Shown here: positions 24,094 through 33,770 of the stretch, piece by piece
How positions within the stretch are numbered: the stretch's first letter is position 1
Layout: the number at the start of each line of letters is the position of its first letter
Source of the DNA: a virus
Reading direction: 5' to 3' (one strand)
Virus record (IMG/VR): IMGVR_UViG_3300036983_000110
Location: 1 to 35,016 of that record
Length of the DNA stretch: 35,016 bases
Program-made: the position numbers and the translations under genes
Notes under the pieces: model-generated
The model's input: only the letters and a program-made list of their open reading frames with translations
Databases searched by the model: none
What the model was told of the DNA's origin: nothing

Positions 24094-24753
24094 CTATTTT
24101 TTCTCTACTATTTTAAGTTCGCAGGAATCATTACTACAAAATTTCTCTATGTCTACAACTTCATTCTTTATTTTCTCAAACTTAATTGGCTTTAACTTCT
24201 TAGACATTGTTTTATATGTCTCTTCATCTATAGTCTCATAAGGCATCTGTTTATAAGCGCCCTTCTCTTTCCTTGGTAAAAACGATATTCCCTTCATCTG
24301 GTATTGAAAATAATCAAGAAGATGTTTTATTTGATGTCCTTCTTTCTCAGGATCAAAAGTAATAGTACAACTTACTTGATTGTCAGCCCAATACTTTTGC
24401 ATAAAAGCAGCTAAAGTTGCTTGTTCCCACATAGAAAGTTCTTTTACAGTTCTAATACCTTCACCAACATCTACAGGAATCTCTACAACAACAGTATTCT
24501 CAGGATCTTCACTTGCTGGTTCAACAACATAATTTGACTTTCTCAATGGTTCTACCAACTCGCTATGTTTAGAAAGTCTCATTCTACGAATATAAAACCT
24601 AGACTCAGGATGATGAATTCCGGGCGTAGCACCTGCTAAAAGACTTACAGAATTGTGAGAAACTATACCATTTTCTAATTGGTAAGTATGTGTATTCTCT
24701 ACTTCAATGTCAACCGTAAAAGCAACACTCTTTTTTTTACTTTTCAATTTCAT
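24094..24753 (-). CDS. nrdJ: Ribonucleotide reductase class II, C-terminal half with C-intein
   Basis: 219 residues. ATG at 24753, with GAGG seven bases upstream, lies inside the end of the endonuclease gene. Residues 1-34 are a C-intein: block F VDIEVENTHTYQLENG and block G IVSHN, with the required His-Asn end. Ser35 is the +1 extein residue. Residues 35-219 continue the reductase: SVSLLAGATPGIHHPESRFY is the loop that follows KPSG in these enzymes. The last segment FCSNDSCELK supplies the C-x4-C pair (Cys206, Cys211) that recharges the active site. Joined with the N-half it gives a reductase of 665 residues, close to monomeric B12-dependent enzymes. Neither half alone should be active. Confidence 0.9.
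   Translation of the reverse strand: MKLKSKKKSVAFTVDIEVENTHTYQLENGIVSHNSVSLLAGATPGIHHPESRFYIRRMRLSKHSELVEPLRKSNYVVEPASEDPENTVVVEIPVDVGEGIRTVKELSMWEQATLAAFMQKYWADNQVSCTITFDPEKEGHQIKHLLDYFQYQMKGISFLPRKEKGAYKQMPYETIDEETYKTMSKKLKPIKFEKIKNEVVDIEKFCSNDSCELKIVEKK
24652..24753 (-). other. Split intein, C-terminal fragment
   Basis: 34 residues encoded at the start of the second reductase gene. Conserved blocks F and G, the penultimate His33, the terminal Asn34 and the +1 Ser are all present, so it should be active in trans-splicing with the N-fragment at 26065-26391. Confidence 0.88.
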
Positions 24754-26008
24754 ATATCAACCTCTTTACTTTAGATTTAGCATTTTCTTTATCTTGTAGC
24801 CATTCACTCTCCCAAACAACATGATACAAAAACCCTCTTTTCAAAAAAAATGACTTTTTTAATTCATCTTTTTCTCTTAATTCTTTAATTGTAACATTTT
24901 TTTCAGGATGAATAGAATTTTCATCTGGAAAAAGCGAATTATGACAATGCCAAAAGTCTCCAAAATATTCTATAATTGCTTTAATTCTTTCGTTTATCAA
25001 AACAATATCTGGATAAATTACTTTTTGATTTATCATTTTTATTTCTTCTTTATTCAAAAAAAGAGCCCATCGTTCTTTATAACCATAAGTTTTACATTTT
25101 GAAACTGTATTTCTAACAAAACCTTCAAGTTCTAACTGTCCATGAGAATTTGATGTATTACATATCCAGTTTTTTGTTATCTTAAGTACAAACTGTTCAA
25201 ATATTTCTCTTCCTTCAATTTCTCCATAAAGTTTTATAAAAAAATTGATATCTCTTTTTTGACTATCACTTAAACTCTGTTTAGCTAGTTCTAAATTATT
25301 ATCACATTTTTTTAACCAATAATTTAACCCAAATACACCATTTAACCCTTTTCGTTCTGATAAGTCATGATATCTTGCTTTACCTTCTTCAAGACCGTAT
25401 TGTCGTATATACTTTTCTTCAGATATAAGAGAATTTTCTTTATGAATTTTTTTTATTTTTATTATTTCATCATCTGTTTTGCCAACACTTCTTAAAGACT
25501 TTTCTGATACTGAAAGTCTACTATTCTTCTCTAAATATTTCTTTTCACCATCTTCTGCCCCATATTTATCAACATAATATTGTTTTGTACCTCTTGACTT
25601 TACTTTTATGTTGTGTTCTATCCATTTCTTTTCACCTTCTTCTTTTCCATAAATTATAATATATTTTTCTAATTGAGGACCTCTATTAATCATTAATGGT
25701 TCATATTCCAAATATTTTTTTGTTCCTTCTTTATCGCCAAACATTTTTACAAATCTTGCATGAGTAATGCTTAAATAACTCTTTTTTGTCTTTGTTTTTC
25801 TTGACTTTAAAGCTCTTAAATGTTCTTCCCATTTTTTGTTTCCTTCTTCACATCCCAATAACACACAATACTTTTGTAAAGTACATGCTGCAGATAATTT
25901 CTTTAAAGACACATACTCAAACCATCTTCTAGTTCCTTCTTCTTTTCCAAATCTTTCAATAAGTTTTTTATGAACATTATCAAAAATCTCTTTTTTCTTT
26001 CTCTCCAT
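24737..26008 (-). CDS. Free-standing homing endonuclease between split intein halves
   Basis: 423 residues from ATG at 26008 (AAAGG upstream; a GTG nine bases earlier is less likely). Residues 15-275 hold seven modules of the form (Y/F)G-x-EEG-x-KKW-x-E; the first Gly falls at 21, 52, 91, 121, 150, 205 and 262. The C-terminal nuclease (about 330-403) has YPDIVLINERIKAIIEYFGD followed by FWHCHN and, later, FLYHVVWESEW, the pattern of Vsr/EDxHD-fold endonucleases (a PD-(D/E)xK relative). The enzyme is known in this setting to cleave intein-less alleles and spread its own gene. It overlaps the C-half start by 17 bases and has its own promoter-like sequence. Confidence 0.85.
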   Translation of the reverse strand: MERKKKEIFDNVHKKLIERFGKEEGTRRWFEYVSLKKLSAACTLQKYCVLLGCEEGNKKWEEHLRALKSRKTKTKKSYLSITHARFVKMFGDKEGTKKYLEYEPLMINRGPQLEKYIIIYGKEEGEKKWIEHNIKVKSRGTKQYYVDKYGAEDGEKKYLEKNSRLSVSEKSLRSVGKTDDEIIKIKKIHKENSLISEEKYIRQYGLEEGKARYHDLSERKGLNGVFGLNYWLKKCDNNLELAKQSLSDSQKRDINFFIKLYGEIEGREIFEQFVLKITKNWICNTSNSHGQLELEGFVRNTVSKCKTYGYKERWALFLNKEEIKMINQKVIYPDIVLINERIKAIIEYFGDFWHCHNSLFPDENSIHPEKNVTIKELREKDELKKSFFLKRGFLYHVVWESEWLQDKENAKSKVKRLIYEIEK

Positions 26009-26031
26009 AAAACCCACCTTTCTTATGTGTT

Positions 26032-26061
26032 GGTTTTATAGAGCGAAATTCAATAAACACT
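26032..26061 (-). promoter_or_regulatory. Candidate promoter for the endonuclease gene
   Basis: In the 53-base gap between the reductase N-half and the endonuclease, the minus strand reads AGTGTTTATTGAATTTCGC then TCTATAAAACC. It matches the site at 28190-28221 in its AGTGTTT element, its TTCGC and its TATA(A/G)AAC element. It would place endonuclease and reductase C-half under their own start site. Confidence 0.5.
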
Positions 26062-27831
26062 TTATAAAATTTCAAACTCATCATCAAACGTAATATCTTT
26101 TGCACATTTCCATTCTCCAGTTTTCATCAAAAACTTGTGTTCAGGAGTGCATTCCAAAAAAGAATTGTCTTCTAAAGTAAAACTTATTGTTTCTTCTATT
26201 CCATTGACAAACAATTTTGAAATTTTCTGTCTATTCTTGTCTTTATCAAAAACATAAATATCTTTTTTTACATCATGCCACTCTCTATACTCATTCTGTT
26301 TTTCAGATAAATCAATTCCATTTTCAAGAAATATGTCATAAAAACTCAAATTACCTTTATCTGTTTTTATGACAGTGTTTGGAATTTGACATCCTGAAGG
26401 TTTGCAACTTGTGGTCTTAATACTGCGTGGGATTGCTAACCAATCTGAATAGACTTGATCCCAACTTTGTATTTCATCATATCCTTTTTGGCACCATTCT
26501 TTTAATTGATGAATACCATTTTTTGCTATAAATTGAGCCACACCACTCATTGAACAACCTATTCTTCTATTTCTAAGTAAAACTCTATTAGTCTCTGGCC
26601 AATGTGTCTTACCTAACGTTACTGTTTTTGCATAAAGATACGCAAATTTAAGTGTTCTTAGATAATCTTCTAATGAGTCATTTCTTGCTGGAAATGTTTC
26701 AACAAGACAACATAACTCTTTATCACACAAACTTTGTTCGCAACAGGGGTTTGTGCCTTCTGCACGATGGTCTTTGTTATCTGGTCCATTATTCATCCTT
26801 GAATAAGCTTTAATATTTTCTAACCAAACATATCCAGGTTCACCATTGATATTTGTTCTCTGTGCTGCATCTGAATAATCCATACCTAGTTCAGCAAAAA
26901 TAGAATTATTAGAAGCCCAACCAAATTCTTCTCTATATGAATTTTTCTTGTAATTTTTAAGTTCAATATATTCTTCATCATAAGGATCACCAAAAACAAT
27001 TGTTGCACTTCGTCTAATATTTCCTGACACGACACATCGCCCAATAAGATTCATAATATCAACTATAGTTCTTACAGAAATAGGTTGTCCTATTTCTTTA
27101 TCAAGAATTTTTGACAATCTTTTGTGCAAATCAATCAATGGTGCAGAACCACTGCTTATTCCTCCAAAACCCTTAATTGGCTCACCTTCTTTTCTAATCA
27201 AAGAATAATCAAATTCTATTGATGCTGTACCATGAAAATAACTTTCAAGAAGTAATCTCAATGACTCTACCCAACCTTCTCTAGAATCTGGTATAACAAA
27301 TATTTCTTGTTTTCTATTTTCATTAGGCCCTTTTATGTGAATAGTCCCTGCTCCAAGCGTATCAAAACCTACACCAACCCCTAACATAGAAGCATCCATC
27401 AAAAAAGTAAATGGTCCAGAAGGATCTTCTTTTATGTTCTTAGTACTAGTGAAGCCGCAATTATTGAGCGCGGCGAAGAGACATTTAACTTCAACAATTG
27501 CACTTCCCATTGCCCAAAGTCCACGACCAGGAGGAAGAAACTTCATGTAAAACATTCTCTCATACATTTCTTGAGCAGACTTTTGAGCCTGCCATGCATT
27601 CCATCCAAGTGAGTGTTGTTCTACCCACTTCTTTTGCATATTATACGTTCCATTAATTACTCTCTCAATAGTCTCAAACCATTCTTCATTAGTTCCATCA
27701 GATTTGATTCTTGAATATGTCCTTCGAAAGACAAGATCCCCTAAACCGTTGAAACCGAAAGGAGGCTTGATTTTTCTATATTTTTCAACAAAATTTTCTG
27801 ACAATTTAAACGAGCCACAAGAAGAAGTCAT
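26062..27831 (-). CDS. nrdJ: Ribonucleotide reductase class II, N-terminal half with N-intein
   Basis: 589 residues, ATG at 27831 after AAGGAG. Residues 1-480 are the N-terminal two thirds of a monomeric adenosylcobalamin-dependent reductase: PPGRGLWAMGSAI, the redox Cys in NNCGFTS (125), the catalytic loop GTNPCCEQSL with Cys363 and Glu365, and the conserved GCSMSGVAQF. No separate small subunit or radical activase gene is in the window, in line with class II. Residue 480 ends the KPSG loop. Cys481 starts a 109-residue N-intein and the gene then stops. The product makes dNTPs from ribonucleotides after trans-splicing with the half at 24094-24753. Two small genes precede it. Confidence 0.92.
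   Translation of the reverse strand: MTSSCGSFKLSENFVEKYRKIKPPFGFNGLGDLVFRRTYSRIKSDGTNEEWFETIERVINGTYNMQKKWVEQHSLGWNAWQAQKSAQEMYERMFYMKFLPPGRGLWAMGSAIVEVKCLFAALNNCGFTSTKNIKEDPSGPFTFLMDASMLGVGVGFDTLGAGTIHIKGPNENRKQEIFVIPDSREGWVESLRLLLESYFHGTASIEFDYSLIRKEGEPIKGFGGISSGSAPLIDLHKRLSKILDKEIGQPISVRTIVDIMNLIGRCVVSGNIRRSATIVFGDPYDEEYIELKNYKKNSYREEFGWASNNSIFAELGMDYSDAAQRTNINGEPGYVWLENIKAYSRMNNGPDNKDHRAEGTNPCCEQSLCDKELCCLVETFPARNDSLEDYLRTLKFAYLYAKTVTLGKTHWPETNRVLLRNRRIGCSMSGVAQFIAKNGIHQLKEWCQKGYDEIQSWDQVYSDWLAIPRSIKTTSCKPSGCQIPNTVIKTDKGNLSFYDIFLENGIDLSEKQNEYREWHDVKKDIYVFDKDKNRQKISKLFVNGIEETISFTLEDNSFLECTPEHKFLMKTGEWKCAKDITFDDEFEIL
26065..26391 (-). other. Split intein, N-terminal fragment
   Basis: 109 residues with Cys1 in block A (CQIPNTVIKT) and the block B TxxH in ECTPEHKFLMKTGEWK. 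It is inserted exactly after KPSG, a reductase active-site loop that is a typical intein site. It ends DEFEIL, followed by the stop codon. Confidence 0.9.
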
Positions 27832-30191: not shown

Positions 30192-31190
30192 TTATAGATT
30201 ATTCATATAAACAATTTTTTCGTACAAATCGTCTCCCAAAACATCTTTTGCTACTGCTGCTTTTCTTTTGAAATCTATGATAGTTTTTATGCCTTCATTG
30301 AACAAACTTTTCACTCTAACTCCACCAATACCCTTAAGAGTACACAATTCTGTTTGCTCTTCAGTAACTTCATATTGAATTCTCATTTGAAGCTTTTTGA
30401 AAAAATCACTTTTATTCCAATGAGAATACATCTTATCTATCATATCTAAAGCTGTGCATGTTCTCTCTATATCAAACTTAACTGTTCGTTTTTGATACTC
30501 ATGTATTTCTTCTGAGAACGTCAAACAAGCATGAAACAAAACACCTATAGAAGCACATGCATCTGTTATCACTAAACCTCTATTAGAACAAGAAGTCACA
30601 AATGCTTTAATTGTATTCTGCATATCTCTTCCTGCAAAATTATCTTGATTGTCAGGAATGTTAGATAGTGCCCAACTTATAGAATGATCATCTAATCTGT
30701 TGTCATTGAATATTCTACTAAAATTGAAGTACCATCCAGAAATTGTATATGGGCTATAGTAAAGATATGAAGCTACTCTACCAAGTTTTGTAATTTTGTA
30801 CCTATTACCTTGTTTCTCAAGTATTTTGTATTTTTCAAGTTTTGTTAGAAGTGCTTCAGCATCAACTCTGTCAAGGAAGTTGTTTTGAAATGCTGCAAGA
30901 CTTCTATTATACCAACTCATCAAAGTTTCAACATCATAGACTTCACCTTCTGAAATCTCAGAAACTATGTGAAAAGCTAGAACATTAGGATCGTTCATTG
31001 TAGAAGAAATAGGAGGTATGTTTTGGCACCAAGATTTGTACCTAGTAAGTTTCGACTGAGGAAGAAGAACATGAGCGTCACCCTTTGGATCAAGCCCAAC
31101 TCTTCCACTTCGTCCACACATCTGTTTAATGTCAAGAGGTTCAACTTCAGACATTCCTCTGTGAACACCAACTATAATTACATTACGCAT
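30192..31190 (-). CDS. Ski2-like helicase, C-terminal fragment
   Basis: 332 residues from ATG at 31190. That start has GGAG nine bases upstream and overlaps the endonuclease end by eight bases. The open frame continues upstream but only across endonuclease codons. It begins MRNVIIVGVHRG, which directly continues motif V of the N-fragment, and has motif VI QMCGRSGRVG at 23-32. A winged-helix and ratchet region follows (LLTKLEKYKILEKQGNRYKI near 110), then a helix-hairpin-helix LKGIGGVRVKSLFNEGIK near 285. Together with the N-fragment it forms a nearly complete Hel308/Ski2-like helicase. Alone it lacks the ATP-binding domain. Confidence 0.88.
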   Translation of the reverse strand: MRNVIIVGVHRGMSEVEPLDIKQMCGRSGRVGLDPKGDAHVLLPQSKLTRYKSWCQNIPPISSTMNDPNVLAFHIVSEISEGEVYDVETLMSWYNRSLAAFQNNFLDRVDAEALLTKLEKYKILEKQGNRYKITKLGRVASYLYYSPYTISGWYFNFSRIFNDNRLDDHSISWALSNIPDNQDNFAGRDMQNTIKAFVTSCSNRGLVITDACASIGVLFHACLTFSEEIHEYQKRTVKFDIERTCTALDMIDKMYSHWNKSDFFKKLQMRIQYEVTEEQTELCTLKGIGGVRVKSLFNEGIKTIIDFKRKAAVAKDVLGDDLYEKIVYMNNL

Positions 31191-32115
31191 TTTCTTCAAC
31201 TCCATACAAAAAATCATGAAATTCTTTTGAATGAATTTTATCTGCACCAAAAATTTCAATTGCATCACGAAACCAAAGTTCATCAATAATATATGAAGTT
31301 ATTTCATCTGCACATTTTTTTCTGTCTTTAATTATAGCATTTTCCCAAAAACGGAACAATTTGATATTATTTTGTTCGCAATAACAATCAAGTTCCATAT
31401 CTTTTACTAATCCGTAAGGATAGTTATGCCAATAATTTCCATCTACTTCTACAAAAATATTGAAAGATCTAAACTTTAAAACACCATCTATTCTTCTTTC
31501 TTTTTCAAGTTGGAGATGATATTGTCTTGTTATCTTTATTAAATAACAAAGTTTTTCAAAACAATTTTCTACAAAATCTAAAAAACTCGTTTCTATCTTT
31601 GAAGAACGATGTGGATTATTCACCCAAGATTTTTCAGATTTAACAGATGCTTTACCAGCTTGTCTCGCCCATTCAGATATTTGTTCTTTTGAATAATTTT
31701 CATTCATTATTTGTCTTATATGCTTTGTTTTTGCTTTTATAATAGGATCTTTTAGTCTTTCTAAATGTGAGTTTTTAATTTTATTTTTTGATTCTTCTGA
31801 ATACTTTTTGTTTTTTTGTTTTTCGAGTGTTTTATTAGAAATTGTTGGAAATCCTGGGAACATTATTTTGTATTGCTTAGAAGAAACATTATGTTTCTTT
31901 AAGTGTCTATCACTTAATTGTTTATGATATGTAAAACATAATTGACACTGAACAGAGATGTCTTTATTTGCTTTAAGTTCTTCTTGTCTAATTTTTTCAT
32001 TAATTTCATATGTTGAAATTTTGAAGTGCTGTAATTGTTTTCTATGTATGTTAATTTCACGCATTGTTTTAAAATGAGTGTCACAAATTTCACAATATCT
32101 ATGTTTAACATTCAT
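31183..32115 (-). CDS. Homing endonuclease inserted in the helicase gene
   Basis: 310 residues from ATG at 32115, which overlaps the helicase N-fragment stop as ATGA; GGGGA lies six bases upstream. Two N-terminal zinc fingers: C8, C11, H24, H30 and C57, C60, H71, H75 (the second in a CxxC...HLKKH form seen with MucR-like fingers). A NUMOD-like stretch SEESKNKIKNSHLERLKDP follows. The nuclease core has ERRIDGVLKF (Asp210) and FNIFVEVDGNYWHNYP with E223, D225 and H230, then IKLFRFWENAIIKD; this is the EDxHD/Vsr-like fold. It probably cleaves helicase alleles that lack the insert. The whole insertion is coding, leaving no space for an intron or intein. Confidence 0.85.
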   Translation of the reverse strand: MNVKHRYCEICDTHFKTMREINIHRKQLQHFKISTYEINEKIRQEELKANKDISVQCQLCFTYHKQLSDRHLKKHNVSSKQYKIMFPGFPTISNKTLEKQKNKKYSEESKNKIKNSHLERLKDPIIKAKTKHIRQIMNENYSKEQISEWARQAGKASVKSEKSWVNNPHRSSKIETSFLDFVENCFEKLCYLIKITRQYHLQLEKERRIDGVLKFRSFNIFVEVDGNYWHNYPYGLVKDMELDCYCEQNNIKLFRFWENAIIKDRKKCADEITSYIIDELWFRDAIEIFGADKIHSKEFHDFLYGVEENA

Positions 32116-33770
32116 ATATTTATTCCCCAAGCTAATGTTGAAGTAGATATAAGAATTTTGATTTCCTTAGACTTAGTTCTTTTTTCTACATTTACTCTTG
32201 TTTTTAAATCTAAATCACCATAATGATAATCAATTTCATTTGGTTTTATGCCTTTATTTAAAAACATATCATATATAATTTTTCCTGTTTTTTTTGAATG
32301 CACAAAAACTAAAACTTGTTGATTTAAAGCATATTTTTGCAACCCTAATTCAATTGTTTTTTTGATCTTGTTTTGTTCCACAGTTTGATAATTACCATAA
32401 TCATCATAAGGCTCATAATAAATATCAAGTCGAATAGGTCTATAATCAGAATTTATTAATTCTGATTTTTTATTATTAAGACTAGAAAGCCATCTAGCAA
32501 GCTCATCAACATTACTCATAGTAGCAGAAAGAAAAACAATTCTACACAACGGGTTTTGCCTTGTAAAACGCATTATTGCTGATTCCAATTTATCACCCCT
32601 GTCTCGCACACATAGAAGGTGTGATTCATCACAGACTACAACACCACAATCATTTAACCAGAAATTTTTTTCAATGAGCATTCTTCGAGTCCTCGAGTCA
32701 AGCATCTCAGTTGTCATTATGATAACATTTGCTTTATTCAGCTCTTCTACTCTTGCATCTGTTAGAGCATAATCTCCAGTAACTATACTTATGTTAAGTT
32801 TGCTCCAGTCATGAGAAGAGTCTGTCCAATCCTCATATTTCTCTTGAGAAACAGCTTTCAAAGGAGAAAGAAAAATAGCTTTCTTACCTTGTGAAATAGA
32901 ATGCGCCATGAACATCTCAGCTACTGTTGTTTTTCCAGCAGAAGTAGCTGCAGCAACTACACAATTAACATCTTTGTCATAGTACTTAAATACTTCAGAT
33001 TGAACAGGATTGAAATGTTCAAATTTGAACTTCAAATATGGGAATTGAGACGTAGGAACTAGATCTATTTCTTTAGCAGGTTTGACTTCTTCTTTTTGAG
33101 GTTCAAATATTGGTGTGTTTGATAGAAGAGGTTCTTCTTCAAAATGTTCTTCTTCAACACCTTTTCCATAGATTTCTACTTCTTCTACTTGTCGTGTGCC
33201 CTTACAACCAGTTTTGAAAAAGTTTGAACATCCGTAAAAATCACCTCTTCTCCCAGACCGTTTAGACATTGGTGCATCACAATCGGGACATCTAACAATT
33301 CCTTCTATAGTTTTACTAGAAGGTTCGCTTTTTACTCTAGTGACACCTGATAAGTCCATTGATGTTTTACACAGGGGGTAAGCAAGGCATCCGTAGAATT
33401 GGCCCTTAGGGCCGTCTCTTAACACCATTACACTTCCACATGATTTACACAACTTTAAGTTTTTGACTTCTTCTTTGAGAACATCTAGTTTTTCTTTGAG
33501 TCTTTCTTTCCAATTAGACATTCGATGAGTTCTTTTTGCTTTGTCTATTGGTTTGTTGCTCGTACTATCTATAAGTACACAACGAATAGCATCTTCACCT
33601 AGATTTCTAGAAACACCTGAAAGCTCTATTGAAGAATAGATTTTTATGTTTACTTTGGGACTGCTAGTAGGTATTTCATAAATAACTTCTTTTGAAGAAG
33701 GATCGTCAACTACAGTGAATACTCCCAAAAAAGACTCAAAATCGTTTCTAGATATCATCGAATATGGCAT
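32112..33770 (-). CDS. Ski2-like helicase, N-terminal fragment with two zinc ribbons
   Basis: 552 residues, ATG at 33770 after AAAGG. Two topoisomerase-type zinc ribbons come first: CKSCG...YGCLAYPLC (108-134) and CPDCDAP...YGCSNFFKTGC (161-189). The RecA1 domain follows: FEHFNPVQSEVF (Q motif), AATSAGKTT (Walker A, about 274-282), LSPLKAVSQE, CDESHLL (motif II, DESH) and LSATMSN (motif III). RecA2 runs to LISTSTLAWGINI (motif V), where the gene stops after residue 552. This is precisely where family members continue with PxR and the GVHRG strand found in the C-fragment. Likely an ATP-driven 3'-5' helicase in replication or repair. Confidence 0.88.
   Translation of the reverse strand: MPYSMISRNDFESFLGVFTVVDDPSSKEVIYEIPTSSPKVNIKIYSSIELSGVSRNLGEDAIRCVLIDSTSNKPIDKAKRTHRMSNWKERLKEKLDVLKEEVKNLKLCKSCGSVMVLRDGPKGQFYGCLAYPLCKTSMDLSGVTRVKSEPSSKTIEGIVRCPDCDAPMSKRSGRRGDFYGCSNFFKTGCKGTRQVEEVEIYGKGVEEEHFEEEPLLSNTPIFEPQKEEVKPAKEIDLVPTSQFPYLKFKFEHFNPVQSEVFKYYDKDVNCVVAAATSAGKTTVAEMFMAHSISQGKKAIFLSPLKAVSQEKYEDWTDSSHDWSKLNISIVTGDYALTDARVEELNKANVIIMTTEMLDSRTRRMLIEKNFWLNDCGVVVCDESHLLCVRDRGDKLESAIMRFTRQNPLCRIVFLSATMSNVDELARWLSSLNNKKSELINSDYRPIRLDIYYEPYDDYGNYQTVEQNKIKKTIELGLQKYALNQQVLVFVHSKKTGKIIYDMFLNKGIKPNEIDYHYGDLDLKTRVNVEKRTKSKEIKILISTSTLAWGINI

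What the first reader, a model, noticed from the sequence alone, without database searches (positions are those of the whole stretch)
24094..27831. Ribonucleotide reductase made from two genes by a split intein, with an endonuclease gene between the halves
The sequence shows a reductase gene that stops 109 residues after an intein Cys1, a separate endonuclease gene, and then a gene starting with a 34-residue C-intein that ends His-Asn before +1 Ser. All key splicing residues are present and the exteins join at KPSG/SVS. This arrangement is known as fractured genes, described from environmental sequences; a complete example inside a phage operon is rarer. Trans-splicing is inferred from conserved residues.
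Basis: partly seen in the sequence, partly recalled or inferred. Interest (0 to 1): 0.85.

Follow-up and report, generated by a model that had tools for sequence, protein, structure and literature searches.

The report
Split-intein ribonucleotide reductase around an endonuclease
A virus DNA-building enzyme is encoded as two separate genes, each carrying half of a self-splicing protein element, with a DNA-cutting gene lodged between them; the arrangement is real and is probably stitched back together as protein, but it is one more example of a 'fractured gene' design that turned out to be common in phages.

Summary
On the minus strand lie an N-half (480 residues of a monomeric class II, B12-dependent ribonucleotide reductase plus a 109-residue N-intein), a free-standing 423-residue Vsr-like endonuclease gene, and a C-half (34-residue C-intein plus 185 reductase residues). 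The reductase cysteines and the class 1 intein residues are present, and 161 of 167 positions invariant in relatives are kept. The 1.74-kb insert has the lowest GC of any stretch that long in the contig. Best explanation: a mobile split-intein/homing-endonuclease element removed by protein trans-splicing. That is the published 'fractured gene' arrangement, and it is not rare: of 86 loci encoding a related endonuclease, 67 show an N-intein half upstream and a C-intein half downstream (polymerase, helicase or reductase genes), including cultured phages. Seven distinct reductases are fractured at this same loop; their inteins form one clade that also holds an unsplit NrdA intein of Campylobacter phages. 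The finding is a new member of a known kind. Trans-splicing and homing are inferred, not shown.

The parts
26392..27831 (-). N-extein: residues 1-480 of a monomeric class II (adenosylcobalamin-dependent) ribonucleotide reductase, ending KPSG
   Evidence: TIGR02505 RTPR 6.4e-72; 1l1l 1.4e-58; uninterrupted relatives
26065..26391 (-). N-intein, 109 aa, Cys1, block B TPEH; stop codon at 26062-26064
   Evidence: TIGR01445 2.2e-4, just under its cut-off, and PF14890 3e-4; end-to-end alignment with a cis intein
24737..26008 (-). Free-standing endonuclease gene, 423 aa: seven (F/Y/L)GxxxG helical repeats, then a Vsr-like nuclease domain at residues 288-423
24652..24753 (-). C-intein, 34 aa, MKLKSKKKSVAFTVDIEVENTHTYQLENGIVSHN
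   Evidence: TIGR01443 1.9e-5, above its cut-off
24097..24651 (-). C-extein, 185 aa, starting SVSLL, with the C-terminal CSNDSC cysteine pair; stop codon at 24094-24096
   Evidence: TIGR02505 2e-27; 1l1l 3.2e-22

Best explanation
A mobile element (split intein plus homing endonuclease) has entered a highly conserved loop of a phage B12-dependent ribonucleotide reductase gene. Shown by sequence: the gene is broken at KPSG/S into two separately started reading frames; each carries one half of a class 1 intein; the endonuclease is a separate gene in the gap. Inferred: the N-intein (109 aa) and C-intein (34 aa) bind each other, Cys1 attacks the Gly-Cys bond, the N-extein is transferred to Ser+1, the terminal Asn cyclises, and a 665-residue reductase is released (protein trans-splicing). 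Also inferred: the endonuclease cuts uninterrupted copies of the gene in co-infecting relatives, so that repair copies the insert into them (homing).
For: Exact seam in 33 distinct uninterrupted relatives, -1 Gly in all and +1 Thr (30) or Ser (3). Intein profile hits at both ends. The joined halves align end to end with a continuous phage intein, with Cys1, block B His, block F Asp/His and the terminal His-Asn conserved. 161 of 167 invariant reductase positions kept, C-half included. Insert GC 27.1% against a mean of 32.8%, lower than every other window of that size. Endonuclease with a Vsr-like fold and relatives in the same layout in 67 of 86 loci. The intein of a phage gene with the same layout and a related endonuclease, Aes123 PolB1, splices in trans (PMC11923092).
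Against: No direct evidence of splicing, expression or DNA cutting. Naturally split inteins often splice poorly (PMC11923092). Some phage reductases split by an endonuclease gene work without splicing (Aeh1).
Confidence: 0.87

Rival explanations
1. Genes in pieces: the two halves assemble without splicing into an active reductase, as NrdA-a and NrdA-b of Aeromonas phage Aeh1 do around the inserted mobE endonuclease gene, and the intein halves are only tails.
For: Proven for Aeh1 NrdA, and split gp43 of phage 25 co-purifies with activity (PMC2988022). A helicase gene in this same window is split by another endonuclease gene with no intein at the break.
Against: All key intein residues are kept on both sides, although nothing but splicing is known to need them. 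The break lies between KPSG and S in the most conserved stretch of the protein, and unspliced tails of 109 and 34 residues would sit there.
Confidence: 0.08
2. A decaying relic: the reductase is broken and no longer functional, and the intein halves are remnants.
For: The window lost a few positions invariant in relatives (E369C, S370D, G520N).
Against: Open frames with starts and ribosome-binding-like sites; 121 of 126 and 40 of 41 invariant positions kept; C-side to N-side identity ratio 0.93, within the range of uninterrupted relatives; catalytic and shuttle cysteines kept.
Confidence: 0.03
3. An assembly or frameshift error that breaks up an ordinary continuous intein with an inserted endonuclease domain.
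For: The window is a virus record assembled from metagenome data, and no raw reads were seen.
Against: Three frames end in proper stops and restart at codons with Shine-Dalgarno-like sequences. Six other distinct fractured reductases and 39 fractured polymerase or helicase genes have the same three-gene layout.
Confidence: 0.02

Closest known systems
Fractured genes (Dassa et al. 2009, doi 10.1093/nar/gkp095; the paper is not held, known here through citing papers and from memory)
   Same: Host gene split in two, each half fused to half of an intein, with a free-standing endonuclease gene between; [quoted passage not shown]
   Different: No difference in kind found; this one is in a monomeric class II reductase at KPSG/S. 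Whether that exact site was among the published cases could not be checked.
Aeromonas phage Aes123 split DNA polymerase (PolB1 intein)
   Same: Same three-gene order with a related Vsr-type endonuclease (26% identity); cultured phage; its intein splices in trans (PMC11923092)
   Different: Different host gene and intein clade; cysteine-less intein
NrdA intein of Campylobacter phages (F355, PC14, NCTC12673)
   Same: Same intein clade, 36% identity over the whole length, homologous site
   Different: Continuous cis intein with no endonuclease inside it, in a class I reductase
Aeh1 nrdA interrupted by mobE
   Same: Reductase gene split by an endonuclease gene
   Different: No intein, HNH endonuclease, function without ligation (PMC2988022)

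Membership tests
Fractured gene | Host gene split into two separately started frames, each with half of an intein | tested here: met
Fractured gene | Free-standing endonuclease gene between the halves | tested here: met
   24737-26008 (-)
Fractured gene | Halves joined by trans-splicing | not testable with these tools
   needs expression and mass spectrometry
Class 1 split intein | Cys1, block B TxxH, block F Asp and His, terminal His-Asn, +1 Ser/Thr/Cys | tested here: met
Monomeric class II reductase (RTPR) | Sequence match to the family over both halves | tested here: met
   TIGR02505 6.4e-72 and 2e-27, each half below the full-length cut-off of 340 bits because the protein is in two pieces; 1l1l
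Monomeric class II reductase (RTPR) | Active-site and C-terminal shuttle cysteines | tested here: met
   LNNC at 122, NPCCEQSLCDKELC at 361 (N-half); CSNDSC at 652 (C-half); matched by eye to the Lactobacillus enzyme, residue roles from general knowledge
EDxHD (I-Bth0305I-type) homing endonuclease | Vsr-like nuclease fold | tested here: met
   E. coli Vsr Z 10.4 and 3hrl Z 10.7 over residues 288-423; weak profile hits to Vsr and to 3r3p at E 0.016
EDxHD (I-Bth0305I-type) homing endonuclease | Conserved E, D, H, D catalytic residues | tested here: inconclusive
   Asp334 and His354 invariant, Asp381 nearly so, but the first Glu of the motif was not assigned
EDxHD (I-Bth0305I-type) homing endonuclease | Cuts the uninterrupted allele | not testable with these tools
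   needs purified enzyme
Genes in pieces without splicing (Aeh1 nrdA) | No intein sequences at the break | tested here: not met
   intact intein halves at both ends

The most novel reading that the evidence does not exclude
One intein lineage is specialised on a single conserved reductase loop and has crossed between reductase subfamilies (monomeric class II, NrdJ-type class II, class I NrdA). It occurs both as a cis intein and as a fractured, endonuclease-armed form, so that split and unsplit states of one intein lineage can be compared directly.
Probability: 0.5. Interest if true: 0.42.

Novelty: new member of a known kind. Interest (0 to 1): 0.3.

Why it matters
It adds an untested natural split intein in the usual long-N/short-C format, with an exact natural boundary, to a set used as protein-joining tools. 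It also shows that fractured genes are widespread in uncultured phages and that one reductase loop is hit again and again. It does not change how such elements are understood.

Tried and rejected
A nucleotide search of annotated phages found nothing, so that collection holds no close relative. A scan of viral contigs with the endonuclease alone gave no relative; the four-sequence alignment was needed. A single-sequence fold of the endonuclease was useless (pLDDT 42.5); the aligned one worked. Foldseek gave no match below 1e-3 for the whole model; the second look found the Vsr fold. The helical repeat part has no reported match, which is no evidence that it is new. An intron reading of the reductase break was rejected because nearly all of the insert is coding and both intein halves carry the splicing residues. 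A frameshifted cis intein was rejected (proper starts and stops, same layout in relatives). The original fractured-genes paper was not in the library, so its list of sites could not be compared.

Full report
Observation. The window is a 35,016-base virus record. On its minus strand are three consecutive genes: 26062-27831 (589 aa), 24737-26008 (423 aa from the better-supported ATG) and 24094-24753 (219 aa, its start overlapping the end of the endonuclease gene by 17 nt). Each start has a plausible ribosome-binding site upstream. The first protein ends in 109 intein residues beginning at Cys481; the third begins with 34 intein residues ending Ser-His-Asn before Ser+1. The flanking reductase parts are 480 and 185 residues, 665 in all.

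What the host protein is. Both halves match the adenosylcobalamin-dependent ribonucleoside-triphosphate reductase model TIGR02505 (6e-72 and 2e-27), and the Lactobacillus enzyme 1l1l is the only solved relative found by sequence. The active-site cysteines fall in the N-half and the C-terminal cysteine pair in the C-half, so neither half alone could be a complete enzyme (inference from the known roles of these residues in the Lactobacillus enzyme).

The seam. Scans of viral contigs gave more than 40 loci with relatives, mostly 55-74% identical, whose hits to the two exteins abut exactly. In 33 distinct proteins without an insertion the residues are KPSG followed by Thr (30) or Ser (3), both usable +1 nucleophiles. 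The window protein keeps 121 of 126 N-side and 40 of 41 C-side positions invariant in those relatives, and its C-side divergence is in line with theirs, so the C-half shows no sign of decay.

The insert. The 1,740 bases between the exteins have 27.1% GC against a mean of 32.8% elsewhere, lower than every other window of that size in the contig. The drop is at the borders: exteins 35.1% and 34.2%, intein halves 27.2% and 28.4%, endonuclease 26.7%. Joined, the two intein halves align end to end with the continuous NrdA intein of Campylobacter phages (36% by tblastn; key residues shared), so nothing is missing from the splicing fold. A break giving about 100 and 40 residues is the commonest natural split site, where cis inteins carry their endonuclease domain (PMC11923092).

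The endonuclease. Pfam and NCBIfam give only weak, sub-threshold hits, among them restriction-like and Vsr families. An alignment of 32 relatives has invariant Asp334, Glu347, Gly350 and His354 and nearly invariant Asp381 and Glu400. The model built from it (mean pLDDT 79.8) matches E. coli Vsr at Z 10.4 and 3hrl at Z 10.7 over residues 288-423, in agreement with weak sequence-profile hits to Vsr and to 3r3p, which from memory is I-Bth0305I. Ahead of the nuclease are seven (F/Y/L)GxxxG repeats in a helical region, presumably for DNA binding.

How common it is. With that family as bait, 86 loci encoding a related endonuclease were examined, mostly viral contigs, with some annotated phage records and the window itself. 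In 67 a simple pattern test found an N-intein half upstream and a C-intein half downstream. After removing near-duplicates, 46 distinct fractured genes remain: 28 labelled polB, 11 labelled gp41-type helicase and 7 reductase (labels assigned by junction motif). Cultured phages are included: Aes123 polB is annotated as split in its record, and the KP13-7 genes are annotated as hypothetical proteins. The Aes123 intein splices in trans (PMC11923092).

The reductase lineage. The seven fractured reductases break at KP(S/A/E)G or APTG. Profile alignment places the window's KPSG/S against the APTG/T of an NrdJ-type reductase, and that APTG/T against the APTA/T of a Campylobacter phage NrdA. The RTPR-NrdJ alignment is of moderate confidence (probability 61%), and RTPR-NrdA did not align directly. 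Their inteins form one clade with support 100/99, apart from the polB and gp41 inteins; the nearest to the window is L061 at 47% identity. Whether this reflects transfer between subfamilies or old shared descent was not tested.

Mechanism and rivals. Trans-splicing followed by endonuclease-driven homing explains every part. The main rival is non-covalent assembly, shown for Aeh1 NrdA (PMC2988022), where the break has no intein halves. Decay and assembly error are disfavoured by intact frames, retained constraint and recurrence of the layout. Splicing, reductase activity and DNA cutting are inferred.

Novelty. The arrangement is published as fractured genes (Dassa et al. 2009, cited in PMC7090010, PMC10448857 and PMC3653736; [quoted passage not shown] This is a new member of that kind.

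Noticed in passing
window 30192-33770 (-): A second broken gene: a DEAD-box helicase stops inside its motif V region (LAWGINI*, 32112), another Vsr-like endonuclease gene follows (31183-32115), and the helicase resumes at MRNVIIVG (31190). Start and stop codons overlap, there is no intein sequence, and an uncultured phage (L142) has the helicase in one piece with the two matches 6 nt apart. It resembles the Aeh1 nrdA/mobE arrangement, in the same virus as the intein-borne break.
   Followed up: partly
window 24740-26008 (-), residues 14-275 of the endonuclease: Seven (F/Y/L)GxxxG helical repeats before the nuclease domain, with roughly two to seven in relatives by pattern and no significant Pfam family; possibly a modular DNA-binding array.
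   Followed up: partly
L022 2571-3595; L011 6804-7993: Uninterrupted-site relatives of this reductase carry continuous inteins at two other positions: at NPC/C (L022, near window residue 363) and near residue 272-274 (L011), each with what looks like an inserted endonuclease domain.
   Followed up: no
L037 1581-3551 (also L036, L038): A split-intein gp41-type helicase just upstream of the intact reductase; no ORF of 100 aa or more lies in the roughly 190-nt gap between the halves.
   Followed up: no
L061 2213-5887; L062 1967-5704: These fractured reductases also carry further intein sequences within their N-halves, so one gene hosts several inteins.
   Followed up: no
L055 (OP617745.1, Klebsiella phage KP13-7): Its DNA polymerase looks like a fractured gene with an endonuclease between the halves, but all three genes are annotated as hypothetical proteins.
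   Followed up: partly
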